This document shows positions 24,858 to 62,766 of a DNA stretch of 64,000 bases, one piece after another. Made by a program: the position numbers and the translations under genes. The stretch is from Rhytidiadelphus loreus (lineage: Eukaryota; Streptophyta; Bryopsida; Hypnales; Hylocomiaceae): the NCBI GenBank assembly GCA_947034895.1, contig OX344763.1, positions 76,589,093 through 76,653,092 on the forward strand, in the 5' to 3' direction. Position 1 is the stretch's first letter. Every line of letters starts with the position of its first letter. Below the pieces are notes generated by a model. The model had not been told where the DNA came from and ran no database searches. It saw nothing but the letters and a program-made list of their open reading frames with translations.

Positions 24858-24940
24858 GTGATTGGGGGGTGGACTTGTTGCCTTTTTTTTCACGACTCTA
24901 TTTATTCATCGACTGTGGGTAATTTTGTGAAGGAAGAGCT

Positions 24941-31639: not shown

Positions 31640-32016
31640 TTTACTTCTTCAACTTCCACAACATGTTTTCCATTTTTTTTGCACGTGGATTTCATGACTT
31701 TATATTTTTTTGGACATTAAAGTACAAGGCACGGTTATTGCCCCAATATTTTGTTTTACGTAAGAGGTCATTCAAGGTAACCTCCAATTGCATATTTTTT
31801 TGAAATCTTGAGTTTAGGAATGAATGCAACTTGCACAACATGTTTTCCATTTTTTTTGCACGTGGATTTCATGACTTTATATTTTTTTGGACATTAAAGT
31901 ACAGTGCACGGTTATTGCCCGAATATTTTGTTTCACGTAAGAGGTCATTCAAGGTAACCTCCAATTGCATATTTTTTTGAAATCTTGGGTTTAGGAATGA
32001 ATGCAACTTGCACAAC
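31640..32016. repeat. ~175-bp satellite, left flank of the 26-kb insertion
   Basis: Two full monomers (GCACGTGGATTTCATGAC at 31678 and 31858) are followed by a third that is cut at 32016 after CTTGCACAAC. The missing continuation of the monomer (ATGTTTTTCATT...) appears at 58266, on the far side of the insertion. Confidence 0.85.
32009..32016. repeat. Left 8-bp target-site duplication TGCACAAC
   Basis: Identical to 58258-58265. Joining the flanks with one copy restores the satellite monomer. Eight bases is the standard hAT target duplication. Confidence 0.85.
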
Positions 32017-32203
32017 CAGGGTTGTCTTGTCAGACAGGATTTTGGGTTTTGACGTCTAATAGACGTGTCGTGTTGAACAAGTGTTGAGTACGCATGTCGT
32101 ACTCGTCGAGTAGGAATTTGTTGAGCGTTTTTTTTTTACCCCGGGGTAAATAACTTTTGCCGACGTGGCTGGACAGTAAGAGTGACGTGGATAGGTTACC
32201 TTG

Positions 32204-32490
32204 GGCGACCTCAGGTCGAGGGGCGACCGCGGGTCCTTAAAATGGGCGATTGCGGGTCCCCAACTGGGGCGACCTCGGGTCGATGACAAGGGCGACCGCG
32301 GGTAAAAAGACTGGGTGACCGCGGGTAGAATGTAGAGGGCGAACGCAGGTCTGAAAACCGGGGCGACTTCGGGTCCAAAATGAGGGCGACTTCGGATCGG
32401 GAATGGGCGACCGCGGGTCTGAAAAATGGGGCGCCTTCGGGTCCAAAATGAGGGCGACTTTGGATCGGGGTACGGGAGACCGCGGGTACT
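32204..32490. repeat. Left subterminal GGCGACCGCGGGTC repeats
   Basis: About ten copies of GGCGACCGCGGGTC or GGCGACTTCGGGTC, all in one orientation, about 190 bases from the left end and 3' of the hAT gene. They mirror the cluster at the right end (57660-58085). Subterminal repeat arrays typically bind hAT transposase. Confidence 0.75.
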
Positions 32491-32840
32491 GTTTAAATTC
32501 AATGTACACATGTGACAATAACACGTGATAACAATAGTGAGCCTAAGCATAACTTTTATAGTCATGCAAAATAATTTCTACACACAAAATTAACGTGTAT
32601 TCAATAATAATATGAACAAAAGTAACATTATTAATAATAAATAGGTTTATAATAGATAGATAGTATTAAGGAATGTATATTTCAATTGAGTTGTCACATT
32701 AACATCTCTAATGAGATGTCACCCAGTCACCCGATACTCAATTGTACTCCTAGCCTTAACTATTTGGCCGAAAAATCATATACCTCAAAATGTAGAAACA
32801 AAACCAAAACTATTTGAATCCTTCAACTTCTAGAGTTGTA

Positions 32841-35800
32841 TTAATCTAATTCGAAATCGTCATCGTTTGACGCTTCATCATCGTCGTAGTCTGTAGGGTC
32901 CTCGGTCTCGTATCCCCTGCGCAATTCTTCATCAGTTGCGTTCTCGTCATCAGCGCCTTCTTGGGTTATGACTGCATTCGAACGTACCTCACGTTCTACC
33001 TCAGAGTTCAAATTGCGCACCTCCATATCAATGGTGTCTCCGATTTGAGTTTGCACCAATCGCTTTTGACGCCGATTTTGATCAGTAATTCCATCAATGC
33101 TAGGCACACTACCACGACCTGGTCCATCAATGTTAGGCACATTGCCACGACCTCGTTCACGTCCTCTTCTACTGCCTTGACCAATGTTGGCAGTGCTGTT
33201 GGTCTCTCCAATACAAAACAGTTGGACAACATAGTTCGGCCGTTTAGAATCTCGTTGGTTTCTCTCCTCTGTCATCAAGATACATCTCTTTCCTTTCCTA
33301 TTGCGTCTACGTGCTGCTTCGACTGGTGATTCTCTAGTACCGGTTGGACTAGAGTCACCAGACGTCATCGAAGGTTGAGTGCTTCTTTGGGTGGGTGCTG
33401 GTGCTGAGCCATGGTTACCTTCGTCCACGGTTTCCGAGGGACCCCAATGAACTGGCGGCCTCGAGGAAGATGGTCCTGATGTCAAGGGTGTCCTATCGAC
33501 ATGTATTGGTGCTCGTCGGTTTACGATTCCAGTACCGCCTCCAATCCTGATAAAGGCTAGGGGCACATTATCATTGTCGTCCGCCTCGAATTCCGTCGCT
33601 GCAACCACTGGAATTGGCGTAGTGTTACTTGCTAAAGGGAGCGGATGTTCTGCATTTTCACCTTCTTCCGCGGGGGCTTCTTGTTCTTCATTTCCACTGG
33701 CCCTATTAATGCGTGTATTACTGCGAAGGGTCCTAGCTCCATTTGGATTCAAAGGTACTGGTATGGGAGATCTTGCATGTTCTTCGACCGGTTGCACTTG
33801 AATATTTTCTCCTTCAGTGTTTGGTTCTTGAATCATTGCGTTTCTTGGAGGTAAAAAAGCGAATGGATCTACGTCCCACGCAGAGACATGGGGAGGTCCA
33901 GGGCGCATCAGGTTTTCTTTTCTACGTTCAATGTCCTCCTCTGAGCGTACGTCATCCTCTAAAGGCATTTCTTCCTCAGAGGAAACGTTTAGCTCTGGTT
34001 GAAAGACCTGCTCTGGTTGTTGTGGGGGATTGACCTGTACATTCCCCTGACGAAACACATTTGGATAAGGTCGTCGTACAGGGTGAACTACGTCTTCCTC
34101 AGGGCGATTGAGCTCAGCCTAGGGATTTCCATCCAAACGCTCCCTTTCCAAAATAGCGTTATCACGCCTACGGGCATAGGTTGTAGTGTTAGAGTCTTCT
34201 GAGCCTGAAAATAGTGGTTCTTCATTTTCTTCATCCGTTAAGCCATCCTCAAGGTACTTTTCATAGAAAGTAGCTGGATTGTGCCCATGTTTTTCACGTC
34301 CAAGTTTGCTGTTTGTGTAGATGTACACCAAAGCTTCTGCTTTAGATGTGGTCAATCGATTTCGCACTTTGTTGTGTACAAACGAATACATGCTCCAATT
34401 CCTCTCGCATGATGATGCCAAGCACGTCAACGACAATATTCTCTTCGCTATTTTTGGAAGCGCATTACCACCCACTTGATTCCACCACTGATGAGGTAGT
34501 AGAGTAGGCTGCGCGTTGATATCAGGAGCCTCCACTAAGGGATCAAAAGGGCCAGTCTTCTCCGTAAATTGCATCCATTTAGCCATAGCTTCTTGGACAT
34601 CTACACCCAATGATCGGCCTAGATTTCGGATGACTTTATTGAAGGCGCTCTTAGCATTCCCGTCATTATGAAGCTCTTCGACATCCTGCAAATACGGGTT
34701 CAGTAGTGCCCCTGCATAATGCAAGTCTGTGCGCATCAATTTCCAACGAGCCTTGAAGTTCTTCTCAAACTTCCTCGCAGTGACTGGATCTAGAAAATAT
34801 GGCGGCCTCGCTAGAGAATAGACGTGTTGTCGAAGGCTCTTCATTACTAACCAAGCTTGAGGCATTGCTGGGGTTTTGCCATCAAACACTCTGAGAGCAA
34901 TAAGCGCTGGCTCTATCAGGTGCTTGAAATTATCACACTCGTTCCAAAACGCTTCTGAACGAATGTCCCCTCGCACCACCCGTGCTCGACATTGAATATT
35001 GTGCCCATTCCTTCTAGACGCCAAAAATAGCTCAAAAGGCTGATATTTCTTGTCTCCTAGCAAGAGGTGCAATGCTTGCTTGACCTCCACCAAACGGTCT
35101 ATCATGAGGAAGTGAACAACAAAGCGTGTAGAGCAAGGAAGTCTCAACGACTTATTCGGTGAGTACTTCCGAAATAGAGCCAAAGTGAGATGATACTTCT
35201 TCACAAACACCACAATCTATTTACATCTTGCCACCAAAATCTTCACACGTGGATCCTTCCCCCAATCTTCTACAAGTAAATCCATAATGTGTGCAGCACA
35301 TCCTTGCATATACATGTGAGGATACCTTTCTTTCAACCTTGCCAAGGTCCCTGTCATTACCGAGGCATTGTCCGTACATAGTTGCACAACATTTGAAGAA
35401 CCAACTTCATCAATGTATTTTGCCATGACATTCGCCGTGTAAGCAATGTCCTTCTCTCCAGTGGTGTCAACCGATTCCCAAAAGACATCACCGGCAGGGC
35501 AAACGAGCATTACGTTCAGCAAAGGGCGAGTGTTCGTATCAGACCAGCCATCTAAACAAATTGTTGCTCTGTAATGGTTGATAGAGGTCTTTGTACGCTC
35601 AAAGACCATCGTCTTCACCGCATCCAACTTATAGTCTATCATCTTCGTATGCACCGCATTGTAGGATGGTGGTTGGTAAGCAAATCCAGCTGCTGTAGTT
35701 TCCTTCACTACTTTCACAAACGCAGGATGATGAACAATGTTGAATGCAATGTTCACTTCATAGAAAAAAGATGCCCACAACTTGTTTAACTTCTGTCTAG

Positions 35801-36287
35801 TCCCCACCTGGAATGCCTCATGCATACTCCATTGACGAGAAACCTGAGGCATAGTCCTCCTTGTTTGAACCGTTGTCGGCGTGGAATCTACGGAATTTGG
35901 ATTATTAGGCGTTCGGTGACTTGGTTCTGCCTCATCTGGAGGCCCCACCACAATAGGCTCGTCCACAGTAGGTTCTTCAATTGACTCAGGAAGAAGTCGA
36001 ACCTCCGAATCCGAAACTGCCGCCTCTACCTCATCCAAAACCATGGCCTTTAGAACAACTCCTCCACAATTCCGAAACTTCTGCAATACCGCATGCGGAA
36101 TTTGTGGACAACGCTCAGATGTGGCCGTACCACCATATCCAAAGTGACTGAATGCCTTCTTCCGCACGAAGACTTTTGTCCAACCGCAAAATACACATGA
36201 TCTCGAGTTTGCGCTGAAGCCGTCTTCTACTTCCAAGTGCAACCAAGGGTCCCATTCTTTTGTAGCCCTTCTTGTATCGCTTAGCAA
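32841..36287 (-). pseudogene. hAT transposase (BED + DUF659 + dimerisation domain) with acidic tail, two in-frame TAGs
   Basis: A single minus-strand frame of about 1149 codons is broken only by TAG at 35217-35219 and TAG at 34119-34121, ending TAA at 32841. Order: a BED-type zinc finger (SCVFCGWTKVFVRKKAFSHF), a DUF659 domain (TICLDGWSDTNTRPLLN; VVQLCTDNASVMTG; GCAAHIMDLLVEDW), and the hAT C-terminal dimerisation motif (CERNWSMYSFVHNKVRNRL). A disordered acidic, RG-containing tail of about 420 residues follows. No ATG is visible in this frame near the 5' end, so the start is lost or in another exon. hAT transposases excise and reinsert DNA, making 8-bp duplications, which fits the ends of this element. 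The long tail recurs in the second hAT (59471-62757). Confidence 0.8.
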
Positions 36288-36540
36288 CGCTCTCCTTCAA
36301 ACATCACGGTCTGCCATATGGAAGATCTTCAATGAAGATCACCCAAAAAAACAGTTACCAACTGAAGTAACCAATCGAAAGAAGTTATGACAAAGACACT
36401 TGCCTCAGGATTCTTTCGAAGCCCTTGAAACAAAGTGGTTGCCTCCCGAAGACTTAAACGTACGCAAGAAGCCTCTTTCAAAGGTTCCAGACAAGAGTTT
36501 GTCAACGGAGCAAGGTGAAAAAGAAACTATAACCCTCTGG

Positions 36541-36790
36541 CTTTTATAGTCCCATCGCCCTTCAACCCGAGGTCGCTCTTCAGCGACTGCCCGACTTCTG
36601 TCTACCCGCGGTCGCCATATGGGCGACCGCGGGTCCATGACGACTTCACATAGGGCGCATGCGGGTAAGGAGGGGCGACCGCGGGTCTAGTGGGGGCGAC
36701 CGCGGGTACGGAGGGGGCGACTGCAGCTCAAGGGGCTAAAAAAAGTCGACCACAGGTCCAACAGGGGATACAACAAGGGCGACCATGGGT
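36541..36790 (-). promoter_or_regulatory. Promoter region of the hAT transposase gene
   Basis: On the minus strand, several GACCCGCGGTCGCC copies are followed by ACCCGCATGCGCCCTATG, repeat halves, and GGGACTATAAAAG at 36553-36541, a good TATA box about 255 bases 5' of the open frame. The shared leader of other genes is not evident here. Confidence 0.65.
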
Positions 36791-37048
36791 CTTGAATAAG
36801 GCGAACTGGTGTTGAAGATGCTAGAACTGAACTTCAGATAACGTTTGCAAAAATTTCATACTAATTTCATTTCATACTATCATACTACTAAAATCATAAC
36901 TCCCTCTGTAATATCACAAATGCTAGGGTTTAATTGTAGGGGCTTATGCTTGCTACTCTACACATTTATTGTATCACATAATTATTACTATATTAGTAAA
37001 AGAATTATATATTTGAATAAGATGCATGATAAGAATTTCAATAAGGCT

Positions 37049-37927
37049 TTAACCCCTAAAGGACCATCATGTTTACGGGCCCAAAACTGCTTCAAAATAC
37101 TCATCCCCAAAGCAAGGTCAAAATCTTCATTAATAATTATTTTTTAACAAATCCAAGCATAGGATCTTTTAGTTGACTTGATTTACCACATTGTCTTAGA
37201 ATTTGAGACAAAATATCCCCACCAATTGCAAGTTCCATGTGCCTAAACTTCAAAATGTAGGCTTTTATAGCCCTTCCAAAAGGTGAAATTTATTCTTTCA
37301 ACATTTTTAGAAATGAAGACATATGTCCTATAACTTGTGCATTTAGTCAATATGCTGAAAAATGGGTTGAGAACATATGCAAACAAATTTAACCGAAAAA
37401 ATGGAAGGTAGTACTAAATGAAATAAAAAACTAATATCCTAATAACTCTTACAAGAAATCAAAAATTGTTAATCCCAATGGTGAAAACGTTCTAATTAAC
37501 AATTATTATCCTTTATTTTTGTTTTTACTGTAAAAATTTAAAAATTGAGAGCTATAGACGACTTTATATGTTTTTTCTACCTTCATTGCCCGCAAAATAA
37601 AACTCCTCATAACTTTTGCCTCATTATTCCGAATTAAATGGTTCAAATACTTTTGAATAGGTATCAATCTATACAATTCCAAGAAAACTATAGATATTTT
37701 TTGAGGAATATATTTTTTGCTGCCCGGTTTGACATTGAAATCAGAAAATTCCTTCTAACTTTTGCAATATTGATCAAAATGATATGAAACAAAGCTTCAC
37801 ACGTAGATTATGATGAGTAGCAGACATCCTAGAAATTTCATGCTAAAATTCCAAATTTAGAATTCAATAGAAGCTGACCAAGTTTTCAAAAAGCACAAAG
37901 TGGGCTCCTTGGTCCTTTAGGGGTTAA
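37049..37927. mobile_element. MITE M1, piggyBac-like, TTAA-flanked
   Basis: TTAACCCCTAAAGGACC at 37049-37065 and its exact reverse complement at 37911-37927: TTAA target duplications with a 13-bp perfect terminal repeat CCCCTAAAGGACC. The 879-bp element has no coding capacity. TTAA with ends starting CCC is the piggyBac signature. Confidence 0.8.
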
Positions 37928-38045
37928 ATTTCAATTTAATTTCAATAAGGCTTTATCATAAAACAAGTTTTTCTTTTCAAGATTCAACAATTACATTGGA
38001 TGAATGACAAATTTGTTAGACGATAAAAGGGTTCAAAATTCTTTG

Positions 38046-39015
38046 TTAACCCCTAAAGTCCCAAACCCCATTTTGGGGGATTATAGATATTTTGGGCAGC
38101 TCACTACGGATGGAATTTTCATTTTTTTTCTTTGAAATTTTCACAGAATATGTGGTCGAGGAGTATCTTGAAGGCCCAACAATTTTCATAACTTTTGGTT
38201 ACATAGTTCAAAAGTTATTGCATGATATGTGGTTTTGTTTGAACTCCGGGCAGTTCGGGCAGACCTGAAAAAATCACTTTTTTAAGAAAAATAAATTTGA
38301 AATTGGTTCTTTAGGTTTATATGTATCTAGAAAGCTTTGAATCATTCCATTTGGATTAATGAGGTGAAAGTTATGAGGAATTTTAGTTTGCGGGCAATTG
38401 TAGATTCTTGACTATAAAATAAACTTTGGAATCCTTTATTTAACTCAATTTTCAATATTTTTTGAAAAAAATAAATATGTAGGATGAATATTCTTTATTA
38501 CAACATTACTACCGTTGGGATTGGCATTTTTTTAATTTTTTAATTAAATTCTTAACAATTTAGTGTTTTAAAACATTCTCTACTTCTATCTACTTACTAT
38601 TTTTTTCCTCTATGTTGTACAATTCCAAACGATTTGAAATTTTTTTAGCACTTAGTCAACTTGTCTTGAAGAATGAAACAAAATAGGCACAACCATTTTG
38701 GAGATTTTTTCATACAAATGTGACCTTGTGAAGTGCAGCTGCCCGTATTTTCACAGGGCCAGAAAATGGATTTTTATTAATTCAAACGCTAATACCTTGC
38801 AATCTACATGGTGGAAATTTCTGAATTTTTTTTTACATATTCTCAAACCACTCTACTACAAGATCCTACGGTTACATGTGTAAAATTTTGTTTTTAAAAA
38901 TGAAATTTGGTACTTGCACTAGACATGATAGTTTTGGAGCTTTTTTGGTGGAAACATAGTCAAAAACCTTTAGGTGTTAATCTAGAATATGGACGTCGGA
39001 GCGCTTTAGGGTTAA
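38046..39015. mobile_element. MITE M2, same family
   Basis: Left end TTAACCCCTAAAGTCCC (38046-38062); right end CTTTAGGGTTAA (39004-39015), one G short. About 970 bp, non-coding. Internal sequence near 38510 is inverted relative to other copies. Confidence 0.7.
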
Positions 39016-39518
39016 AGTGCATTCGATGGACACGCCTAAAAATTTGTAGTTTAATAAATTGCATTTCTCATGTCCTGCATTAATGCAATGGATTTACCAT
39101 TTTTTGAAAAAAAATAAAAAAATTTAGTCCTACATTTCTAGCTAATTGCACATCACATTTCATACAATCACCATGAATGCCAAAAAATAATGTCTATGCA
39201 AAAAACATTAAACCTTTTCAAATATGAGGGGCCTTTGCTAGTTTTTAATCTAGTGATTCTTATTAAGGCTTTCAAATCTTTTTCTCAGCAAGTTCTTACA
39301 TTCATACAGTAATGACTTCATTTACCAAAAAACACATTTTAGCAACATCAAATATAAACACACATTTGACATACTTGTGGGTCAAAAGAAGCAAAAAAAT
39401 TCGTACCAAAATTATATATATATATTCACATTTAGGAAATAACAGAGTCATTCCGATATCTACCACCCTAGTCGGGCAATATCCATATATAGTTTGCAGA
39501 CCTTGACTGCCACATTCT
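39016..39518. other. No gene recognised
   Basis: AT-rich 3' flank of the minus-strand WCHI gene. No terminator or element end identified. Confidence 0.35.
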
Positions 39519-41102
39519 TCATTGCTCATTTGCGGGCTCCTTTAAGGCCTTCTCCTTCAACATTTGTTGTTTCGCAAGCTCCTCGTTGCAACGCTTGGAT
39601 TTAAAATAAGTTGGAACGAATGACTTGTTCGTGATCAAAAATTTCTTGACCAGTCTATTCAATGAAATGTAGGAATTTTTCCATTGAATGCTCTTCTGAT
39701 ATTCGTCTTCCAACATCTTCAAAGAAACAAACATATTCTTCAATTCACCTATTTCTGATGGTGAGGTTTGTTGTTGCCCATCCATAGACGCCACATCCAA
39801 CTCCAAAGTTCTAGCAAGGGGGCCTTTATCTTTGATGGAATGGAGGTGATTCAACCGAGATCGGGCTGCTTCCAAATTTTGCCTTGCCTCGTTACCCCGA
39901 TTCTCTTCAATCCTGCAAGCTTCCATGATTTTGTGTAGTTCTGTCTTTCTAACTTGCTTTGGATTGGAACTCGATCCTCCATCTTGCCCTTTATTGAAGT
40001 TCAAATAGAAGTCTTCCAACTTGACCATTTCGTCTTGTTGAACAGCCAAGCAATTGATGCCGACATCTATTAGATCTTTTAAGCTGCGCACATCATTAGT
40101 CTCAATATCATCTGTGGTCCTGTCTTGTAGAATCTGACACTCCAATTTGACTCCTTCAATTTGAACAAGCAGATCCTTCAATTGTGCCTTGTAATATTTC
40201 TTCATTGATTTCGTATTGCTATGGTCATTGTATACAATATCTTCTGGCTCTCCTTGGTTCTGCACCTCTGGGATCCAGTCATCAACTTCATCCTCATACG
40301 GCTTTAACATTAAGAGCGGTGTAGATTGGGGTTCAGTCTCAAAATAGAAATCATCCTCAGCCATTTCTCTCAAGCATGCATTCACATGTCTCTCCACTTC
40401 ATCTATTCTGGGATGAGAGACATGCCCTGGTTCCATTGATGCAAGAGGTGTCACATCCATTGCTACGTCCCCTCTTACATTCCCTCCTTCAAATACTACC
40501 AAGGCTGTATTTTCGGAGAATGTTGCTTCTGCCATAGGGGACCCAGGATCTGAAAAATCTTCTTCCATGGAGTCATCCGAGCTTGACCATTGGTAGTCTT
40601 CATTTGGCACGCCTTCTATAATGTGCTTCTTAGGCCCCAATCCATCTCGTGGATTTTTGGAAAGATTTGCCCTTGGAATGTCTTTGGCGGTTGGTCTGGA
40701 CAACTTCTTCGAGGCCTTCATGCTACGCCAATCCACCGTTCGTTCCAACTGCAACTCTACATACACCATTTGGCAAATGCCCAATGAAACTTCACTCCGT
40801 GGGACTTTCTCCGTTTTATACAACCATTGGTACACTTCGATACATCGTTGTACAAATGCATTATCCTTGCAATAATGAAGATTTGCAAGGTTTTGATTCA
40901 AATGAATCTTGTGCCGATAGTAAGGGAAAAGTTTGTCAATGTGACACCATCCCACAAACGTCTTACACACTGGCAAGGTCCAATCTTCTTCTACATTGCG
41001 CCATCCTCGAAAAGCCTTGCTCGCAGGGTCAAGTAGGACTCGTCGATTTCTGTCGTGGCGCTCTCCTTTTTTCTTTGTCTTCTTCACTTTCGGAGGGGCC
41101 AT
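39519..41102 (-). CDS. WCHI-domain coiled-coil protein, paralogue 1
   Basis: Intact frame of 527 residues; the ATG at 41102 (MAPPKVKK) is chosen over a GTG 3 bases upstream. The first ~150 residues hold a domain shared with 50894-52305 and 55056-57540: KAFRGW, then GWCHIDKLFPYYRHK, NLHYCKDNAFVQRCIEVY, CQMVYVELQLERTVDW. The N-terminus is very basic (KKTKKKGERHDRNRR), followed by an acidic middle and a long coiled-coil-like C-terminal half (LEDFYLNFNKG; LKMLEDEYQKSIQWKNSYIS). I do not recognise the family. It has the common repeat-type promoter and lies inside the giant element. DNA binding is possible from the basic N-terminus but unproven. Confidence 0.7.
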   Translation of the reverse strand: MAPPKVKKTKKKGERHDRNRRVLLDPASKAFRGWRNVEEDWTLPVCKTFVGWCHIDKLFPYYRHKIHLNQNLANLHYCKDNAFVQRCIEVYQWLYKTEKVPRSEVSLGICQMVYVELQLERTVDWRSMKASKKLSRPTAKDIPRANLSKNPRDGLGPKKHIIEGVPNEDYQWSSSDDSMEEDFSDPGSPMAEATFSENTALVVFEGGNVRGDVAMDVTPLASMEPGHVSHPRIDEVERHVNACLREMAEDDFYFETEPQSTPLLMLKPYEDEVDDWIPEVQNQGEPEDIVYNDHSNTKSMKKYYKAQLKDLLVQIEGVKLECQILQDRTTDDIETNDVRSLKDLIDVGINCLAVQQDEMVKLEDFYLNFNKGQDGGSSSNPKQVRKTELHKIMEACRIEENRGNEARQNLEAARSRLNHLHSIKDKGPLARTLELDVASMDGQQQTSPSEIGELKNMFVSLKMLEDEYQKSIQWKNSYISLNRLVKKFLITNKSFVPTYFKSKRCNEELAKQQMLKEKALKEPANEQ

Positions 41103-41333
41103 CACGGTAGATTGGGCTGGAAATGAACTTAGCCAAAATCTAACAAAGGGCTACACTATACGAAGAGTGTACTGGCAACTCTCTAACGACTGCGAAATTT
41201 AATTTCAGTAATTACATCAACACTTGTGCATTCAAAATATGCCAACAAGTGTATTTTCGAAATCACTGAATCCCTATAGTACGTGTCGGTGCATAGGATG
41301 TGGTATAAGGGTTCAAGACCCTACGTTTTAGCA

Positions 41334-41580
41334 CACGTGCATGCATCCAGTCGCTTCAAGGCGGATGGAAGACAGAGCGCAGCGCTAGAAGTGACCAAAA
41401 AGAAATGCGGACCGACTTTTTGTACCCGAAGTCGCCCGGGGCGACTGCACAAGGGCGCGCGCGCAAATCAGGGCGACCGCGGGTCCCAGAAGATTGACCG
41501 ACTGTCTCAGAACGAAACAGGGCAACCGCGGGTGCCACAAGGGCGACTGCGGGTCAGAATGGGGCGACCGCGGGTCAGAG
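41334..41580 (-). promoter_or_regulatory. Promoter and leader of WCHI paralogue 1
   Basis: Minus strand, in order: GACCCGCGGTCGCC repeats (41580-41460), a GCGCGCGCGCCC box, GCGACTTCGGGTACAAAAAG (41435-41416) with an AT-rich TATA-like core, and the leader CGCCTTGAAGCGACTGGATG near 41361-41342. The order is the same as at 24.7, 45.1 and 50.5 kb. Confidence 0.65.
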
Positions 41581-42365
41581 CAATCATGTCACTACGAAAA
41601 AGCAATTAATGAAATTGCCACCAATTTCCCTATTTACATAGGAGGGAATCCATTTGAATTCAAACTTTTCAGTTCTCCCCCTAAATACCCTACGCTCGGG
41701 TCAGATAAGTTAAAAATTAATTCAAAAATAAATAAAGAAGGCATGGAATGAAATTTTCAGAAATTATAACCTAGCATAAATTGAAATGTCAAAACATCTT
41801 GATGAAAATAAATTGAAATCTCAAAATAAATCTTGATGAAAAATGAAAAATGAAAAGTAATAAACATAATAAGGTCATTGTTTCATGAATGTAAAAAATC
41901 AATATAACAAATTAACTTACTAACTTTAGTTGTTTTTCCCCCTTAAGAGCTACACTATATTCACAAAAAATGATTCAATGTCGTAAAAGATGTGAGAACC
42001 TTGCCATTACAAGGGGCAAGGGGATTGAAATGTGAGGCTACAAACCTTCATTGTTATGTAAAGCGTACTTATGTTAAATGTTTTGTCAAGAATGTATGAC
42101 CCTGCTATTACAGATTCTAACATCAATCAAGATTTGATAAAGTCCAAAGTAATGGTAATGTAGTTTAGTTGTAATACTACTAAAGTTAATGAAATATTCC
42201 ATATTTCATATAGTTATATGATGAAATCCAAAAATTTCAAAATTGACCTAATGAAAGGGAAATTCAATGAAAAAAAAATGATTTCGAATGAAGTTAGATG
42301 AACCTGACCCCAAGGTACGGTACTATACAAGTAACCCTGAATTGCCCAAGTCATGAAAGTTTGAT
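41581..42365. other. No gene recognised
   Basis: AT-rich spacer between the promoter of WCHI paralogue 1 and the 105-bp tandem array. Confidence 0.4.
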
Positions 42366-45257: not shown

Positions 45258-45327
45258 TCTGAATTTGTAGGGGGGACCCTTGCAAATTTTTTCTCTCAAA
45301 CTTCTTAGTAGCGGCAAGTCGGCAACC

Positions 45328-49081: not shown

Positions 49082-49225
49082 ATTTATATTGAATTGGTGG
49101 ATGGTTATTCCCTTGAGGTGGGACAAGATGGTCACAAGGTGTACACGTTCAATTTGAAGAGGCTTAAAAACCAACCCCCATTAGACACTGAAAAGTGGAA
49201 ACGTCTCAAGAGTCTCAAGAAATGA
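49082..49225 (+). pseudogene. Possible coding fragment (about 47 codons)
   Basis: A frame with protein-like composition reads GQDGHKVYTFNLKRLKNQPP, then TEKWKRLKSLKK and TGA at 49223-49225. It has no ATG or partner exons and is not in a recognised family. It could be a gene remnant. Confidence 0.25.
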
Positions 49226-50339
49226 GTATCTCAAGTGTCTTAGACGTAGGTAATTTTTCGTCTCTCTGCCACATTTGGTTGCATACTTTGATTCAATACG
49301 GGTAGGGCTATTTTTTGCTTAAGAGGATCCAGAGGAGGAAATCTTATTAGGTTTTCTTTCTCCAAGCCTGATGTCTTGAGGAGATGAAGACTGGCAATTC
49401 TGGTTTCATGCTGTTCCTCAATGACCCTCATAAATTGCAGATCTTATAGTGTAACTTCCTAGTGAGTAGGATTTGTGATAACGCCCAAACTGCTGCTAGG
49501 TTGGGTAGGGTCCAATACATGTGTTTACAAGAAATTTTTCTTTAGGGTTGATCTCATTCTTTGAAAATATCTCATAGATGGGATTGAAACACAATAATCC
49601 CAATGGTGATATTGTTCTAGCAAACAAAATCAACCTTGCCCAACAATTTTTTTTTTTAAATTGTGAAAATTGCATTCACAAATGAATCCTATAAGTTATT
49701 GGTTCAAGAAGATGCTTAGATTGCCCGAAAAACAAGATTATTCATAACTTTCACATCACTAATCCAAATTGAATGAATCAAAGCTTCATATGTAGACAAA
49801 AATATGGTCTATAAGGGGAAACAAAATACAATTTTTTTTTCAAGTTTTTATATTTTTTTTTTTTGCCCGATGAAGTGAAAATTATGTTTAGGAATTAGGA
49901 TGGCATAACTTTTGTTCATGAGCACCGATTGAAATAAAAATTATATTCCCACATAGATAAGAGGTTTTTCTATCTCATGGGAAAGTTTTAAAAAAATTAT
50001 TAGAAATTGAAGTCGTAGGAACCTGCTTGAAATTCATTTGTCCCCCGAGGGGACAACGGTCCTTTAGGGATTAAGCTCTCGAGGTTCAGATTTTGTGCTC
50101 ATGATGGCTACTCTCTTGAGTTCGAAATAAATCCCACGGTTCTTATGAAGTATGGTTTGCCTGAAGCTCTGTTTTGCGTATATAGGGCTTCGTTGTGAGT
50201 GTTTTATATGATAAATTAGTACATTGAATATTGCAGTAACACCAAATCCAACCATTCTATTGGCCAGTTGTTAAAAATTTGAAAAGAAAAAAAAGGAAAA
50301 AAAAAATGGGAAAAAAGAAAAAGAAAAAAATGATCCTGG
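49226..50339. other. MITE-like remnant, no gene
   Basis: GGTCCTTTAGGGATTAA at 50058-50074 looks like a right end of the TTAA MITE family, and the block near 49560-49625 resembles M3/M4 internal sequence. A matching left end was not found. Confidence 0.4.
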
Positions 50340-50615
50340 ACCCCAGGACCCCAGGTCGGCACAACCCGCCCCGATATCCATGGTCGCCCCAGGGCCTAGT
50401 ACCCGCGGTCGCCCCAATACCCAACCCGAGGTTGCCCCAGTTACCCGACCCGCGGTCGCCTTGATTTCTTGCACGCGCCCTGATTCCATAGACCCGCGCT
50501 CGCCCCGGTGCGACTTCGGGTACTAATGCCGGTCGCTCCCACTGCAGGTTGCTACTTCCACCTCCGTCTGTGCATTGTCTGTCAACCACTTAGTGGCTGA
50601 TTGCATGCACGGTAG
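50340..50615 (+). promoter_or_regulatory. Promoter and leader of WCHI paralogue 2
   Basis: CCCGCGGTCGCCCC repeats (50355-50465), GCACGCGCCCTG (50471-50482), GTGCGACTTCGGGTACTAAT (50508-50527) with a weak TATA-like core, and the leader CAACCACTTAGTGGCTGATT (50583-50602) with TGCATGCACGG. Same order as the other genes. Confidence 0.65.
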
Positions 50616-50893
50616 TTGGGCTTGAGTGTGTAAGGGGATGTTTTGCACCTCTTTGCACCTTTTTTTTATCTACGCTCTCACTTGGACCCTCACTTGCCAA
50701 CACACTTCCAAACATTATTGCCACTGTAAATGTGAAACATTGCATATTTGTAAATGTGAAGTACAAGTTTGAGACTTTGGTATAGTTTGACTTGGGTAGA
50801 ATAAGGGCAACTCTGACTAGTAATCGACTAAGACATAGAGTCTATTAGTATTGGTTGGGTAATTTCCAGCACTCTAGCAGTAAGTCCTAAACC

Positions 50894-52305
50894 ATGGACA
50901 ACAAGCCACCACCATCACTCTTTCATAGCCTTGAATCCCTTACTCCGAAGCAGAGAAAGGAGCTTTGCAACAAAGAACGACAACGGGCTGGTAAAAAACA
51001 CAAAAAGCGCGTGGCAATCTTGATCCATCCCAAGATCAAAGCATTCAAGGGTTGGAGAACCGAACCAGAACCTTGGAATTATGTAATGGTTAAGAAATAT
51101 GTGGATTGGTGCCACATCTCGAAGCTGTTTCCATTTAACCGTCATCGTAAACACGTGAAAACCAACAAAGTGAATCTTGCATATTGCAAGAACATAGCTT
51201 TCATGCGCAGATGCTATGAGGTATGGTTTGTTCTGTACTTGGAGGAGAAGACATTTCGCAATGATGATTTCTGCTTTTTTCTCGTGCAAATGGTCTACAT
51301 AGAAGTAATATTGAAGAAGGAAGTGGACTGGACAACTTTGAAGGAGCTTCCTATTGGTGTCTGTCTTGAGGAAGCCCAATTAGTAGGGATTAAATTACCC
51401 CAGGATTGGCAAATGATGTTGCGCCCCGTGAAACTTGGGAAATCAGTTGTTCCCGATGAAGAGGTAGTGTGGTCAACTACTTCAAGCGATGATGAGCATA
51501 CTCATGAATATGACGGATATTCTTTCTTGAATGAAGAATCTGAACATGAAGACATTTCCATGGAGGATTTTTTGAAGGCATTATATGGAGGAACTGCTAA
51601 GAAGGGGAAAGGTATGGAGGACCCTATGACAATTGAAGAAGTAGGGCAAAGTGGTGGTACAAGTGGCTCTGAGGACGATGAAGAGTTCTTGCTAGCAAAA
51701 GTACGTAGCACAACGTTGACTTTGGAGGCCAAGAAAGAAGAATTGAAGAGTTTGAAGGAGGGTGAGGCCAACCGTGGCTACATGGATGAATTGAAGCTGA
51801 AATTGAAGTCCATAAATAAGGCCATTGCTGATAATGATGAAGATTTTGATTCCTTCAAGACCAAGCACGATATGTACTTGAAGAAATATAGAAGTGGAAA
51901 GGCTTATGTAATGGATGAGTATATGGTTTGGGAATCAAAGCTCGAAACCCTTCGACGTAGACGTCGGGTGGTAGAACAGAGAAGGCAAGCCTTGAATGTT
52001 CAAATCCAAGAAAAAGAGAAAGAATATATTGATATTGCTGAGCAACATTCTTCCCAGGCAGACCTTCTAGCTATAGATCCTACGTATAGAGAGAAGGATG
52101 GAGAAATCCAAACGCTTTGGGAGTTGGTGAAGTTCCATAAAAAAAATTGGCAATTATGAAAGATGAGGAACGAAAATTGGCTGCCAAGTGTCAGTACTAT
52201 ACAACTTGGAAGAAGTGGGCTTTCCATACCTTCGGGAAAGAAGACCAGGACGATGTAGAGGAACTGCAACCTGAGCCTAAGATGAGTGACTTCATCATCA
52301 GTTGA
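50894..52305 (+). CDS. WCHI-domain coiled-coil protein, paralogue 2 (one homopolymer frame break)
   Basis: Starts ATG 50894. Basic N-terminus (KERQRAGKKHKKRVAIL), then the shared domain KAFKGWRTEPEPW, DWCHISKLFPFNRHRKH, NLAYCKNIAFMRRCYEVW, VQMVYIEVILKKEVDWTTL. An acidic linker and a strong coiled coil follow (about residues 270-420: SLKEGEANRGYMDELKLK, ETLRRRRRVVEQRRQAL). The plain frame stops at 52159, but an A8 run at 52139-52146 just before it suggests one missing base: the next frame continues MKDEERKLAAKCQYY, with KKWAFHTFGKEDQDD, to TGA at 52303-52305, and the resemblance to the tail of paralogue 1 persists. Family unknown. Confidence 0.7.
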
Positions 52306-52477
52306 ATAAGTCACAATTAATCCAATGGACAATTGTAAATTCTTTTTGCGGCACTACAATTTTCTTTGATATCATGTACATATGTAATCTTGTATGTCAA
52401 GTAAATAAATAATACAAGGTTTCACTGGCAATGTACAGTCTACAGTGCATATGGCTCCTTATTCCATCTTTTAAGTT

Positions 52478-53422
52478 TTAACCCCTAAAGTCCAAGGCCT
52501 CTTTTCTGTCAAAAACCACTCAAAATTGTCATTTCTATAGCAAAGTGCAATAAAAAAATTAAAATGCTCTTTTTGGCATATCTAACCGTAGGATATTGTA
52601 CTAGACTAGTATAAGTCTATAAGAATGTATGGAAGAAATTTTAAAATTCTTGACTTTGTAGATTGCAAGATATTTGCGTTTCAAGTGAAATAAATAAAAA
52701 AATTGGTACCTTATTCAACTACAATTCCTGGTTTTGAAGCTTCATAACTTAAAATTTTGCTCTATTGATTTTGAAATTCTAATTTTATATGTTAGATATT
52801 TGAGTTGAGACTGTAGGAAAAAAAATTAAGGAAAAAATCACTTAGTTTTCACTCATTAAAAAATTGTTAAGTAGAAGTAGGTTCAAGATTGAAAGAAAAT
52901 CTAAATTGTTAATAGCTTTAAGATGGAATTGAAATACACCAATCTCAACGGTGAGATTGTTCTACCTAAAGATCTTAACCTTGTGAAACTTGTTTTTTGG
53001 AAGAAATGCAAAAATTGAGGTCAAAAATGAATCCTACAAGTTGTTTTTTCTGGAAGGTTCTCAAATAATTGCCCCCAAAACAAGATTGTCTATAACTTTC
53101 ACATAACAAGTCCAAATGAAAGAAATTAAAGCTTCCCATGCACATAAAAATATAATCTATACAAAATTATAATTATTTTGAATATTTTCCTTGAAGTTTT
53201 TTTGAAGTTTTTTTTCTGCCCGCCAAACTAAAAAAAGGGCTTCTTGTGCCATAACTTTTGCTCCCAGACTCCGATTGAAATAAAAATTATATTTTCGGAA
53301 AGCTTATGACTTTATCTATCTTCACTCAAAATTTCAGAAGATTACATCAAATATTGAGACCGTAAGAGCCTGCCCGAAATCTATTTTGTCCTCGGAGGGG
53401 TTAATGGGACTTTAGGGGTTAA
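52478..53422. mobile_element. MITE M3, piggyBac-like
   Basis: TTAA at 52478-52481 and 53419-53422, with perfect 12-bp ends CCCCTAAAGTCC / GGACTTTAGGGG. About 937 bp between the TTAA sites, non-coding. Inserted 170 bases 3' of WCHI paralogue 2. Confidence 0.8.
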
Positions 53423-53795
53423 CCCACTTTTTTTTGTAGTGAGGTGCCTATAATGCAAGGAAATAGGCTTTGGGCCTTTAGGGATTATTAGTTTTGTCTC
53501 ATCAATTTATACGAAGGAAATAGCGGATTAGTAGTATTGTCCTATTGTGTAATTTGGGGCTTTGGGGCCACAAATTGGATATTTTCTTGCATTCCTTATC
53601 TAGTTATCTCTTGACATATAATTGTGTGTTTGTATTTTTTTGGATTTATGAAAATTACTAATTTCAATTTCAAAATAGGTATAAGGGGCTTGTGACTTTT
53701 TATGGAGGTGACTATAGACTTGTAGTATACTTGTTCATTTGCAAACTGTATTTCCAATTTCTATATTTTTTGACCACAAAGAAGGGATGGTTGTC

Positions 53796-54762
53796 TTAAC
53801 CCCTAATAGACTACAACCCTTTTTTTGGTCAAAAGCCACTTAAAACTGTCATTTCTGCTCCATTCATCCATGAAAACAAAAAAATAGTGAAATTTTAGAA
53901 TCTAACCATAGGATCTTGTACTCTACTTACCTAAGATGATGTGATAAAAATATCAAGAAGTTTGACCGTACAGATTGGAAGATATGAGCATTCAAAGTTG
54001 GAAAAGAAAGTTTTCTTAAACTCTGGTTTGCAACTTTAGACGACTTTGTCCTCCATTTGTGGAAGTTTTTTTCACTAAAGAGTAAAGACCTTCAATTTAA
54101 TTTTTTTTCTATTGGCGGATTGAGTTGAGAGATTAGGACAAAAAATTCAAAAAAAGAAGACTTTGTTTTCATTCTTTCAAAATTTATTAAATAGATGTTG
54201 GTTCAAGATTGAAAGAAAAACTAAATTACAAATATCTCATAAATGGAAATGAAACAAAATAATCTTAATGGTGAAATTGTTTGAGCAATCAAAACCAAGG
54301 TTTTCCCAAAAAGAAAATTGGAAAATTATGAAAATTGCATTTACAAATGAATCGTACAAGTTGTTTTCCTATATGATGTATAGTTGTATGATTCCTAATG
54401 ATCTCAATTTTTTTCAGGCATGTATCCAAGAAGATGTGGAAAATGAATCCAAAGAGTTTCAACCATTTTGGACATTCTTTCATACCAAATTACCAATGAG
54501 GCCTTCAAAAGTGCAGCTGCACAAATTTCCATAGGGCCCTAAAAATAAATGAACACTTCAAATGTTAATATCTTGCAATCTACATGGTGCAAATTTCTGA
54601 AATTTTTTCCACACGTTTTGGAACAAGTTCAAGAGAACATCCTATGGTTACACATTTTTGGAATTTTTATCTTTCTTTCTTTGGATACATGTACAACAGT
54701 ACAAGAAGTGGTAGTTTGGAACCTTTTTTGGTGAAAACATAGACAAGACCATTTAGGGTTTA
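53796..54762. mobile_element. MITE M4, piggyBac-like, decayed
   Basis: Left TTAACCCCTAATAGACTAC from 53796; right end ATTTAGGGTTTA, where the target is TTTA instead of TTAA. Internal blocks (AAGATTGAAAGAAAAACTAA; a motif near 54240-54285) match M3. Confidence 0.6.
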
Positions 54763-55055
54763 GTCAAAATTACCATTGACCAAAGATTTGGAATCAAAAA
54801 TAATATAGATAATATTCAAAATGAAAGCAATATAAAATTGCAATACGCGAATACATTCACCACATTGAAGAATGAAGAGGAATCTTCAAATAACTCTAAA
54901 CCACGGAGAAGGATAAGTGCATCTGCATACTTTTATACCATATAGGCATTTGACCGTTCTAGTGGCCTTACATAACATAAATTTTTACGATAATGCTTAT
55001 CTGACTATATGTACGTAGAACTAACTAACAATCCTTACAACTTATTCTATAAGAG

Positions 55056-57540
55056 TTATTTCAACATGTGAACCACTTCTTGACCATGTGATTCACTATT
55101 TGATGGCCTGCCTACCTCAAGCCGACGCTTGCCATGTGTTCGCGAAGCGGGTTTGTCTGCATTCAAAATAGACTCCAACATGTTGGAGTCTTTTAGAGCT
55201 TCGAGGGTCCTCTTTGTTTGTGGGGAGTGTTCTTCGAGTAGATAGTCGAGCGCTTGACTTTGGTAATAAGGCCCGTATGCAGACTCAAGGTATTGCATGT
55301 CATTCAATTCTTCCAGCGACGCATTTCCGTGGTCGGCCACTCTTTTTCCTTGTAAATTCCAACGATGACCTTGCGGATGAGGACCCCACTTGAAGGATTT
55401 TGAATTGATGTCAAAATATCCACCAAGGCATTGGTAGAAAAATGCCCTCCTACCTTCATTTTAAGGGCCGCTTCCCATGAGCCTCGGAGCAACTCTAGTA
55501 ATTTCAGCTCGGTCGGTTTCCCAATTGAGTTGCGAGCTGGCAATACCTTTTTCCAAATCATGTTCCACTTGTCTCCAGCTCCAAAGCAAATCTTTGCCCC
55601 AAAATTTGGTCACCCCCATTGTGTCACTATTGTACTCCCAAGAAGGTGGCATGTAAGTCTTCAAATTGAACATGGCATATAGACGGTCATGGAAGGGTGC
55701 TGAACAAATCACACAACGCCGTCTAATTAGACATTGCGTGATGAGACATTGAGGATGGTAGATATGTGCACAAGATCCAAGTGCCCATCCTCCTTCAGGT
55801 CCAAATTGCTCTAGACAAATAGGGCATTTCGTGTGGTCCAAGACAAACTGTGCGGGCTTTGGCCACAATAATTTCTGCTCCTCCTCTTTGAAGTGGCATG
55901 ACTTTTGGTTTAAATGGTCCCAACCATTGCGTGTCCAATCTATTACATCCTTTTCAGGAACCATGGGCATATATCAGGATACATGTCTTCTAACAAAGGC
56001 CACGACGTCAGTCTATTCTCTCGTTTTGGAGCATTTGCAATGAAGTTTTTGGAAACTTTTTCCAATTCCTTTGCAACTTGCTGTGATCTATCCACTGAAA
56101 GAATGCAAGCAACCTTCCAATGGTAGTATGTAGCTGCCAACTCTGCCAACCGGCCTTGAAGTGTCGAGTTCTCCGCTTGAAGTTCCAATCCCTTTTCTGA
56201 GGCTACCAAGCTCGGAAGCGCGGGGAAAGAAAGAGAATCTTCGGTCTCTTGGAGGTCACATACAGGATTGGACCTATCTCCCATGATGGCAGCAGGACTT
56301 GCAATAGGGAAGTGTGTTGCACGTTTTGAAGCAGGAGAAGGGTGATCGATGTTATTTGTAAGATTCCCTACCACTTTGTCTAATTGCATCGGATCATGGT
56401 CAATTAAACTATCGTCCATATCCGACAAAGAAAATTGCTCTTTTTCTCTAAGGCTTTTCAGCTCCGAACATTGCTGAGAAATGATGGTTTTCTGTTGTTT
56501 GCCTTCATCTTGCAATTTCTTCAATGCACATTGCAAGGAGGCAATCATGGTATCTTTGGTCTTCAATAAAACCAAAGCTTGTGCCAAAGTCATAGAGTTC
56601 ACCCTTGTGGCCACTTGAGGTTGAGGATCTGGAGCGGCATGAGCTACTTCCATGGTGGTGTCATCGTCCTGTCCAAAGTCAAAGACTGTGCTGGCATCTC
56701 GTTGTGGCAAAACATCATTTGGAACAGCTGCCGATGTCAATCTAGAACCAATTTGTGTGGTAGATCGTTGCACTTTCGAAGGTTGTTTAGCTCTACGTCC
56801 TCGTGATGGCCCAACTCCATCGTCCATCACAGCCTGACCCTCAGAAGGGACAACAACCTCCTCAATAACTCGTGCGGTCCTAGTAATTCGAGTACCATCA
56901 GAGTCATTATCTTCTTCAGATTCCTCAATGTCTACTTCCTCAGGCTGGATAGCTTTATACGCACTTTGAATTTGTTCCAACCCTCCTTCCAGGAAAGGCA
57001 AAACACCTCTTGGTATTAAACCACTTTCTGGCCGTTGTACGTACGTGGTCTCTTTAACTGTTGTCCAATCAACCTCCTTGTTCAGTGCCACCTCAACGTA
57101 TGCGCCTCGAGCAAGGAAAAGAGACACCTCATTTCTTTCAACAAACGGGGTCCGGTAGAGGGTTTGCCACAATTCGAAGCACCTTTGTGTGAAAGCCTCG
57201 TTTTCACAGTACTTCAAATTGGCCTTGTTGGTGTGACGGTTATAATGATGTCGCCATGCCGGAAAGAATTTGTCGATGTGACACCATTCAATATAATCTT
57301 CGCACATCTGCATAGTCCATGGCTTCGGCTCGTCTTCCCAGCCTTTGAAAGCGAGGTGGTTCTCGCTATTTAGTACGTGCCATCGCTTTTGGTGAATCGT
57401 GCCCTTGCGCTTCCAAAGCTTGTCTTTGGTTGCCTTCCTGATTGCACCTGCCGTGCGTGCAACAGCGGAGAGAGGAAGCGACCTTGTGACGTTGTCGTTG
57501 ATGCCCGTAATTGATTGTTGAAATGAAGACCTAGTGACGA
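55056..57540 (-). pseudogene. WCHI-domain protein with RING-H2 finger, paralogue 3, frame-broken
   Basis: Minus strand. The first ATG of the main frame is at 57313 (MQMCEDYIEWCHIDKFFP), but homologous coding continues upstream without ATG (AFKGWEDEPKPW; KRKGTIHQKRW) to about 57530, where an acceptor-like AG suggests a missed first exon. The shared domain (WCHIDKFFPAWRHHYNRH) is followed by an acidic/Ser-rich linker and coiled coil (LSDMDDSLIDHDP). Frame switches occur near 55955, 55555 and 55335. The next frame (55970-55461) holds a C3H2C3 RING: C-x2-C-x14-C-x-H-x2-H-x2-C-x10-C-x2-C (KCPICLEQF ... CVICSAPF). RING-H2 domains usually act in ubiquitin ligases. Two short segments (55561-55304, 55340-55056) continue the tail to TAA at 55056. 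Confidence 0.6.
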
Positions 57541-57588
57541 TACCGAGAAATGTGATAAAATAGAAGAAGTTAAAGTTTCAACAAATAG

Positions 57589-58085
57589 GGCTCATGCATG
57601 TAGCCATGAATGGATACAAGACACTAAGCCAAAATGATGAAAAGTGTTGATGAAGACACGGGCGACTGAATATATAGGGGCGAGGACAGGTCGGGTGACC
57701 AAGAGTCTTGGGAGGCGCATGCGGGTAAGGGCGACCCCGTGTGTCTTTAGGCGACCGCGGATCCACTTGGGGCGCATGTGGGTACATGTGGGGCGACCTC
57801 GGGTCAATGGGCGCGACTGTGGGTCGATAAGGGACGATTGCGGGTCGAAAAGGGCGACTGCGGGTCAAGGGGGGCGACAAGGGGCGACAAGGGGCGACTG
57901 CGGGTCGTGAAGGGGCGACCGCGTTTCGGGTGGGTGCATTCGGCTTGTAGGAGGCGACCGCGGGTCTAGGAGGGGCGACTGCGGATTCCTTATCGCACCA
58001 AAGGTCGCCCCGAACCCGCAGTCGCCCACACCCACGGTCGCCCATTACCCGTGGTCGCCCCTCCAAGTCATACCCGCAGGCGCCC
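57589..58085 (-). promoter_or_regulatory. Promoter of WCHI paralogue 3 and right subterminal repeats
   Basis: GGCGACCGCGGGTC-type repeats fill 57660-58085. On the minus strand the GCATGCGCCTCC box (57724-57713) is followed by CCCCTATATATTCAGTCGCC (57680-57661), a clear TATA box abutting a repeat half, then a leader-like CATTCATGGCTACATGCATG (57612-57593). The cluster serves both as promoter and as right-end array of the giant element. Confidence 0.65.
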
Positions 58086-58099
58086 TAAAAATATGCCAC

Positions 58100-58257
58100 G
58101 CGGCTGCCAAATAGGCTATGGTAAATAAAAGTAATTCCAGAAAAAGTCAAAGGGTAACATTGACTCTATTAGACGGACGGGGGGGTCTACTACCCCTATT
58201 AGACGTTGAACAAATTTTGTCTGTCGAGTTGTCCGTCTGTCAGGGTAGAGAACCTTG
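58100..58257. repeat. Right terminal inverted repeat of the giant element
   Basis: Read inward from 58257: CAAGGTTCTCTACCCTGACA, then GACAGACAAAATTTG, AACGTCTAATAG, and further in a GTGGC-containing stretch. The left end at 32017-32190 has CAGGGTTGTCTTGTCAGAC, GACGTCTAATAG and GACGTGGC in the same order. Divergence is high, with a length difference of about 15 bases. Confidence 0.6.
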
Positions 58258-58495
58258 TGCACAACATGTTTTTCATTTTTTTTGCACGTACATTTCATGA
58301 CTTTATATTTTTTTGGACATTAAAGTACAGTGCATGGTTATTGCCCGAATATTTTGTTTCACATAAGAGGTCATTCAAGGTAACCTCCAATTGCATATTT
58401 TTTTGAAATCTTGGGTTTAGGAATGAATGCAACTTGCACAACATGTTTTCTATTTTTTTTGCACGTGGATTTCATGACTTTATATATTTTTCAGG
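58258..58495. repeat. Right target duplication and resumed satellite
   Basis: TGCACAAC (58258-58265) is followed by ATGTTTTTCATTTTTTTTGC, continuing exactly the satellite monomer interrupted at 32016, then one further monomer start near 58436. Confidence 0.85.
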
Positions 58496-62757: not shown

Positions 62758-62766
62758 AGTGATCAC

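What the first reader, a model, noticed from the sequence alone, without database searches (positions are those of the whole stretch)
32009..58265. A 26.2-kb giant hAT-type transposon with cargo, proven by a satellite that reads through
Seen: TGCACAAC at 32009-32016 and 58258-58265; ends CAGGGTTGTCTT / CAAGGTTCTCTA in inverted orientation; the ~175-bp satellite monomer stops at 32016 and resumes at the same monomer position at 58266. Known: hAT elements make 8-bp duplications and usually span 2-5 kb. Inference: one element carrying transposase, kinase, RING and three paralogous cargo genes, enlarged by nested MITEs and a tandem array. I know of no described hAT element with this gene set.
Basis: partly seen in the sequence, partly recalled or inferred. 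Interest (0 to 1): 0.95.

Follow-up and report, generated by a model that had tools for sequence, protein, structure and literature searches.

The report
Giant hAT transposon with conserved genes
A 26,000-base jumping gene of the hAT kind carries four extra genes, including a protein kinase and a likely ubiquitin ligase, and relatives with the same genes in the same order occur elsewhere in this photosynthetic organism's genome, so the extra genes look like working parts of the transposon rather than chance passengers.

Summary
In detail: a 26,241-bp element (32017-58257) is flanked by a perfect 8-bp duplication, TGCACAAC, inside a ~177-bp satellite that resumes in phase. It is one mobile unit: a second copy on another chromosome (26,042 bp, 95-97% identical) has the same two ends and its own 8-bp duplication (7 of 8). 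Two diverged relatives, 22,068 and 24,757 bp, have perfect 8-bp duplications; one sits inside gene A of another copy. All four have the gene order hAT transposase, A, kinase, B, C. The RING is not a separate gene but the end of C. A, B and C share an N-terminal domain without Pfam or PDB match. Between subfamilies dN/dS is 0.14-0.17 for C and the kinase domain and 0.17-0.20 for the transposase (dS saturated), so these accessory genes look constrained like the transposase. GGGCGACCGCGGGT arrays lie at the ends and upstream of each gene in the window element and in one relative. The window copy is broken (transposase, kinase, B and C); open frames are common among related copies. New variant of a known kind: a giant multi-gene hAT family. 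What the extra genes do is inferred. Nine literature searches showed no such hAT.

The parts
32009..32016 (.). 8-bp target-site duplication, left copy (TGCACAAC)
32017..58257 (.). the whole element, 26,241 bp
   Evidence: ends shared to the base with copy K2
32017..32037 (+). left terminal sequence CAGGGTTGTCTTGTCAGACAG
   Evidence: 875 matches with up to 3 mismatches in the genome, reversed control 1
32203..32474 (+). GGGCGACCGCGGGT array, left subterminal
32841..36296 (-). hAT transposase (DUF659 plus Dimer_Tnp_hAT), broken by two in-frame TAG codons in the body of the frame; a TGA lies near the N-terminus
36565..36777 (.). GGGCGAC array upstream of the transposase gene
37049..37927 (.). MITE-like insert, TTAACCCCTAAAG ... 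CTTTAGGGGTTAA
   Evidence: superfamily is inference
39519..41150 (-). gene A, open 543-codon frame, no Pfam domain
41424..41562 (.). GGGCGAC array upstream of gene A
42371..43857 (.). 105-bp tandem array, about 14 units here
44660..45148 (.). GGGCGAC array upstream of the kinase gene
45271..46893 (+). protein kinase gene, interrupted by in-frame TAA (45685) and TAG (45925); kinase domain in 45928-46893
50401..50492 (.). GGGCGAC array upstream of gene B
50891..52159 (+). gene B, 422-codon frame; the 3' part appears to continue in another frame (frame change near 52150, read by eye)
52478..53422 (.). MITE-like insert with the same TTAA-type ends
55056..57577 (-). gene C: N-terminal domain shared with A and B, coiled region, C-terminal RING; frame change near 55950 and one TAA at 55461
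57729..58072 (.). GGGCGAC array, upstream of gene C and right subterminal
58233..58257 (-). right terminal sequence, inverted CAAGGTTCTCTACCCTGACAGACGG
58258..58265 (.). 8-bp target-site duplication, right copy (TGCACAAC)

Best explanation
It is one copy of a genome-wide family of giant hAT DNA transposons (22-26 kb in the four elements with both ends read) whose normal content is five genes in fixed order: a large DUF659-type hAT transposase, gene A, a protein kinase, gene B, and gene C with a RING domain. SHOWN: unit of insertion, 8-bp duplications, shared ends, shared order, and low dN/dS of C, the kinase domain and the transposase between subfamilies. INFERRED: the transposase binds the short TIRs and the subterminal GGGCGACCGCGGGT arrays and moves the unit by cut and paste; the same arrays upstream of the genes let an element protein (transposase, or the A/B/C domain as DNA-binder) co-regulate them; and the kinase and the C-RING protein act on host or element proteins to help the element move or escape silencing. 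The window copy looks unable to make its own transposase and could move only in trans.
For: Perfect 8-bp duplication inside a satellite that resumes in phase. K2 on C4 has the same ends and its own duplication GTTCCTTC/GTTCTTTC, 7 of 8. M1, 22,068 bp, GATGTTAG on both sides, same gene order, transposase open over 1137 codons. An M2-type element of 24,757 bp sits in gene A of K5 with TCTTCTAG on both sides, the uninterrupted window gene A (TCTTCTGG there) being the empty site; it too has a transposase. Among best hits, 64 of 80 A hits have a kinase hit within 20 kb (random mean 0.82) and 72 of 99 B hits likewise (0.92), clustered in distance and strand; 13 of 41 M1-type transposase hits, M1 included, have a C hit within 60 kb, all on the same strand (about 1 expected). 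dN/dS of window and K1-K5 against M1: C 0.14-0.16, kinase domain 0.14-0.17; transposase (window, K1, K2) 0.17-0.20. Residues K42, E59, D156, N161, D180 of the kinase invariant in the 13 sequences aligned: window, M1 and 11 of the 107 database proteins. Array clusters: 6 of 6 in the window element and 6 of 6 in M1 lie at an end or upstream of a gene.
Against: The window copy is decayed, and the M1 copy read has one stop each in kinase and A; none of the copies read here has all five genes open. dS between subfamilies is saturated (about 1.3 to infinite), so the ratios are rough. Within the K group ratios run from 0.26 to 3.65 on few differences, and the 3' half of A is weakly constrained between subfamilies (0.39-0.42). 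The hit lists are cut to best hits (80-124 scored of 1309-2387 candidates), and many hits have no listed partner: only 28 and 36 of the 100 listed ends have an A or a kinase hit within 20 kb, 63 of 124 kinases have an A, and 28 of 41 M1 transposases have no listed C. In M2 the kinase is on the other strand, and one array cluster there (C3:60321851-60322063) is not next to a known gene start. The RING of M1 scores below its Pfam cut-off (24.5 vs 27 bits), that of the window above. No expression, binding or mobility data.
Confidence: 0.93

Rival explanations
1. Pack-type capture: an ordinary hAT picked up host gene pieces as passengers, which mean nothing to the element.
For: The window copy is decayed and gene capture by plant TIR transposons is well known (recalled). 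A kinase in a transposon suggests a host origin at some time.
Against: Same four accessory genes in the same order in three subfamilies about 30% apart in DNA. Kinase domain and C are as constrained as the transposase. The genes are whole in M1 apart from single stops, with their own arrays upstream.
Confidence: 0.04
2. Composite or macrotransposon: two ordinary hAT copies moving the DNA between them, as with paired Ds elements.
For: Ac/Ds macrotransposons of tens of kb are known (recalled).
Against: The 21- and 22-base end patterns with up to 5 mismatches match the window only at 32017 and 58257; 10-base patterns with one mismatch gave scattered single matches, one of them exact at 41994 without further end sequence. 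The transposase sits once, and M1 and M2 repeat the layout. Strongly diverged inner ends could have been missed.
Confidence: 0.01
3. Nest: an ordinary ~5-kb hAT (32017 to about 36.8 kb) into which, or beside which, other multi-gene elements landed.
For: The GGGCGAC arrays at 36565-36777 and elsewhere look at first like subterminal repeats of separate elements.
Against: Each inner array lies upstream of a gene, and I saw no end sequence with 8-bp duplication beside one. K2 and M1 have the same layout.
Confidence: 0.02

Closest known systems
hAT superfamily elements with DUF659 plus Dimer_Tnp_hAT transposase (plant type)
   Same: 8-bp duplications, short TIRs starting CAGGGTT, GC-rich subterminal repeats, transposase with both Pfam domains; four plant-named proteins (Vicia twice, Sorghum, Hibiscus) match over under half of the transposase at 27-33%
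   Different: 22-26 kb instead of the usual few kb (recalled); four conserved accessory genes; transposase frame of 1137 codons in M1
ToxhAT, a 14-kb hAT-like element of fungi with cargo (PMC6737239; passages read)
   Same: hAT-like transposase, TIRs, several other genes inside
   Different: 74-bp TIRs, other genes, fungal; the paper reports its individual components in other genomes, whereas here the set recurs together
Giant KDZ, EnSpm and Sola-1 DNA transposons of Ectocarpus (PMC12477816; passages read)
   Same: 10-30 kb elements carrying extra genes and nested inserts, transposase often broken and copies presumably moved in trans
   Different: Other superfamilies; the passages seen list hAT at 0.05% of that genome and name KDZ, EnSpm and Sola-1, not hAT, as the giant families
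Pack-MULE / gene-capturing TIR transposons of plants (recalled)
   Same: Non-transposase coding DNA between TIRs
   Different: Captured pieces vary from copy to copy (recalled); here the set and order are fixed

Membership tests
hAT superfamily | 8-bp target-site duplication | tested here: met
   4 of 4 elements with both ends read: three perfect, K2 7 of 8
hAT superfamily | short TIRs of the hAT type (CAGGG..., motif recalled) | tested here: met
   9, 11, 9 and 11 of the first 12 bases identical in window, K2, M1, M2
hAT superfamily | hAT transposase with C-terminal dimerisation region | tested here: met
   window DUF659 2e-30 and Dimer_Tnp_hAT 2.4e-07; M1 3.9e-36 and 8.4e-05; all above their cut-offs
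hAT superfamily | DDE catalytic triad in an RNase H fold | not tested
   residues not assigned; no fold made of the transposase
hAT superfamily | excision and reinsertion | not testable with these tools
   needs strains or an assay; the satellite and gene A give natural empty sites only
Composite macrotransposon | complete ends at both sides of the cargo inside the unit | tested here: not met
   no inner ends found with 21- and 22-base patterns, up to 5 mismatches
Pack-type gene capture | variable, mostly partial host gene pieces | tested here: not met
   same genes in the same order in three subfamilies; dN/dS
Maverick/Polinton-like element | protein-primed polymerase, integrase, capsid genes | tested here: not met
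   no such Pfam domain in 10 window frames inside the element or 9 frames of the M1 region, 2 of these outside M1; short frames were not scanned

The most novel reading that the evidence does not exclude
A hAT lineage that has become a self-contained multi-gene mobile unit: the kinase and the C-RING protein are obligatory parts of its life cycle, for example modifying the transposase or marking host silencing or repair proteins, and the A/B/C domain is a new DNA-binding fold that reads the shared promoter and subterminal arrays, so that one repeat serves both transposition and gene control.
Probability: 0.3. Interest if true: 0.88.

Novelty: new variant of a known kind. Interest (0 to 1): 0.8.

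Why it matters
hAT elements are usually thought of as small one-gene transposons (recalled). A high-copy family of 22-26 kb hATs with a fixed, apparently selected gene set, including a kinase and a likely E3 ligase, would show that hAT transposases can carry and keep large multi-gene units, and would give a tractable case for asking what accessory genes do for a eukaryotic DNA transposon. It also means that many predicted kinase and RING genes in such genomes belong to transposons.

Tried and rejected
Rejected: nest of small hATs, composite macrotransposon, Pack-type capture, assembly chimera (see rivals). Rejected: a candidate inner right end at 41994-42003, one exact match to CAAGGTTCTC without further end sequence. 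Considered and left: an altered genetic code with TAA/TAG read as an amino acid. Many other copies have no stop over the aligned part (18 of 41 M1-type transposases; 99 of 119 kinases of the 63-65% group; counted), TGA also occurs as an in-frame stop in copies, and database relatives have the frames open, so decay is the simpler reading. Led nowhere: the structure of the shared A/B/C domain (164 residues, pLDDT 77.6, pTM 0.71) gave no PDB or viral match; NCBIfam gave nothing of use for 5 proteins; a profile search of the PDB matched well only at the RING (RING finger protein 24, 2.1e-07). Dropped from the dN/dS comparison: K3 for A and the M2 part for A (each met another paralogue, the A gene not being in the stretch held), and K5 for the transposase (86 codons, another place). 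Literature: nine searches showed no giant hAT with this gene set in their listings; PMC9594970, listed, was not opened; the review PMC6431247 has no whole-word occurrence of hAT in its main text. Most subscription papers and preprints are not in the library. A count of right ends by pattern was asked for and never answered.
Full report
WHAT WAS CHECKED. The window lies at C3:76589093-76653092 of a 407-Mb assembly of 489 contigs; the five contigs met in the searches, C1-C5, are 51-94 Mb long. The element runs from 32017 to 58257, 26,241 bp, between two copies of TGCACAAC. The 177-bp satellite before it (31650-32016) continues after it at the next base of the monomer, so neighbouring monomers show the site before insertion. 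The left 21 bases occur, with up to 3 mismatches, 432 times on one strand and 443 on the other, against 0 and 1 for the reversed pattern. In 8 of the 8 such loci fetched (one is the window's own), the inner side holds 6 to 16 GGGCGAC motifs in 1.5 kb and the outer side none.

ONE UNIT, SHOWN BY OTHER COPIES. Searching the first part of gene C against the genome gave 80 scored matches of 2387 candidates: the window, five copies at 93-95% and 74 at 57-60%. I fetched 29-30 kb around the five close copies and around one distant copy. K2 (C4) matches the window from one edge of the element to the other in pieces of 95.4-96.9%; it starts and stops at the same bases, is 26,042 bp and has GTTCCTTC / GTTCTTTC at its two sides. 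K1, K3, K4 and K5 have the same right end with different flanks; their left ends were not reached. K1 has a 3.5-kb insert in its transposase gene.

RELATED SUBFAMILIES. M1 (C3:77289420-77311487, 22,068 bp) has GATGTTAG on both sides and the same genes in the same order at roughly 67-71% DNA identity: C with RING (855-codon frame), B (501), kinase (one stop), A (one stop), transposase (1137 codons, open). A third type, M2, was caught as an insert: 24,757 bp at C3:60306141-60330897, inside gene A of K5, with TCTTCTAG at both sides; the uninterrupted gene A of the window, which reads TCTTCTGG there, shows the empty site. It holds, in order, a broken transposase, A, kinase, B and C; its kinase is on the other strand compared with the window. 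I did not read its middle 7.8 kb; the A and kinase there come.

GENOME-WIDE CO-LOCATION. The lists are of best hits only: 80 of 2308 candidates for A, 124 of 1309 for the kinase, 99 of 2291 for B (106 matches; 7 second pieces dropped), and 100 listed of 875 end matches. Within 20 kb, 64 of 80 A hits have a kinase (random mean 0.82), 72 of 99 B hits have a kinase (0.92), 63 of 124 kinases have an A (0.76), 28 of 100 listed ends have an A (0.88) and 36 of 100 a kinase (1.18); distances and strands cluster (for example B on the opposite strand about 7 kb from the kinase in 58 cases). For M1-type transposases, 41 were scored of 1686 candidates, all full length, M1 itself and 40 at 96-98%, 18 of the 41 without a stop; 13 of 41, M1 included, have a listed C hit within 60 kb, all on the same strand, 10 of them at 17.0-19.4 kb, about 1 being expected; 28 of 41 have none in the list. 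A 4-kb piece of an M2 copy matches the 30 other places scored (of 7864 candidates) in main pieces of 94-99%, so M2 probably spread recently. I give no total copy number, since the lists are cut and the ends include partial copies.

GENES. The transposase has DUF659 and Dimer_Tnp_hAT. The RING frame and gene C are one gene: database relatives and M1 have both in one frame; the RING is above its Pfam cut-off in the window and just below it in M1. A, B and C share an N-terminal domain with 25 invariant columns in 14 sequences, no Pfam match and no structural match. The kinase keeps lysine 42, glutamate 59, aspartate 156, asparagine 161 and aspartate 180 in the 13 sequences aligned, which are the window, M1 and 11 chosen from 107 database proteins; that these are the catalytic residues is recalled. 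dN/dS by Nei-Gojobori against M1: C 0.14-0.16 and kinase domain 0.14-0.17 (window and K1-K5), transposase 0.17-0.20 (window, K1, K2), first part of A 0.09-0.16 where dS is finite, second part of A 0.39-0.42; for B and the kinase N-terminus dS was infinite except one pair of B (0.16). Within the K group ratios run from 0.26 to 3.65 on few differences and stops are scattered, as in dying copies. Rows dropped are named under what was tried.

ARRAYS. GGGCGACCGCGGGT with up to two mismatches occurs 54 times in the window in seven clusters, against 0 in five Markov shuffles. Six clusters lie in the element: left end, and upstream of transposase, A, kinase, B, and C (the last also being the right end). 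M1 has six clusters in the same places. Of the five clusters in the read parts of M2, four fit this pattern and one (C3:60321851-60322063) is not next to a known gene start. The one cluster outside the element in the window (24495-24744) lies by a kinase remnant of the same family.

STATE OF THE WINDOW COPY. Transposase: two in-frame TAG codons in the body. Kinase: TAA and TAG. C: a frame change and a TAA. B: a frame change near its 3' end. A is open. It could move only with transposase from another copy; this is inference.

HOST. 

MECHANISM. Shown: insertion as a unit with 8-bp duplication, hence hAT-type integration, and low dN/dS of accessory genes between subfamilies. Inferred: transposase binding to TIRs and arrays, co-regulation through the arrays, and a helper or counter-silencing role of kinase and C. 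I put the first of these at about 0.7 and the helper role at about 0.3-0.4.

KNOWN OR NEW. Papers were seen as passages only: PMC12477816, PMC6737239, PMC6431247; others only in listings. Giant DNA transposons with accessory genes are known in other superfamilies, and a 14-kb hAT with cargo is known in fungi; I found no hAT family of this size with a fixed gene set in the listings of searches. I call it a new variant of a known kind.

Noticed in passing
window 58911-63400: A second, different hAT (DUF659 transposase on the minus strand, several stops) starting CAGGGTTGAC at 58911, with GCGGACGGC-type arrays near 58940-59190 and 63085-63343; its right end was not found in the window.
   Followed up: partly
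window 23800-26150: Remnant of an M2-type giant element: array and broken kinase gene; part of it 80-85% identical to a piece of an M2 copy, L043.
   Followed up: partly
window 16588-17122: Diverged monomers (about 71-77% identical) of the same ~177-bp satellite, 15 kb away from those at the element.
   Followed up: no
window 37049-37927, 38046-39016, 52478-53422 and others: MITE-like inserts with TTAACCCCTAAAG ends; the TTAA edges suggest piggyBac-like elements. Related stretches occur in M1 and M2.
   Followed up: partly
L021 (K1), about 2440-5900: 3.5-kb insert in the transposase gene of K1, with TG...CA edges and ACATC repeated at both sides, as from an LTR retrotransposon.
   Followed up: partly
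L038:8375-9820: Another kinase-like 481-codon frame just outside M1 (Pkinase 3e-05, below cut-off); may belong to a further giant element family.
   Followed up: no
window 21036-23270: 744-codon open frame with DUF7869 (2.3e-41), probably part of another mobile element.
   Followed up: no
window 42371-43857: 105-bp tandem array; K1 to K5 all match into it, apparently with different unit numbers; could serve to tell copies apart.
   Followed up: partly
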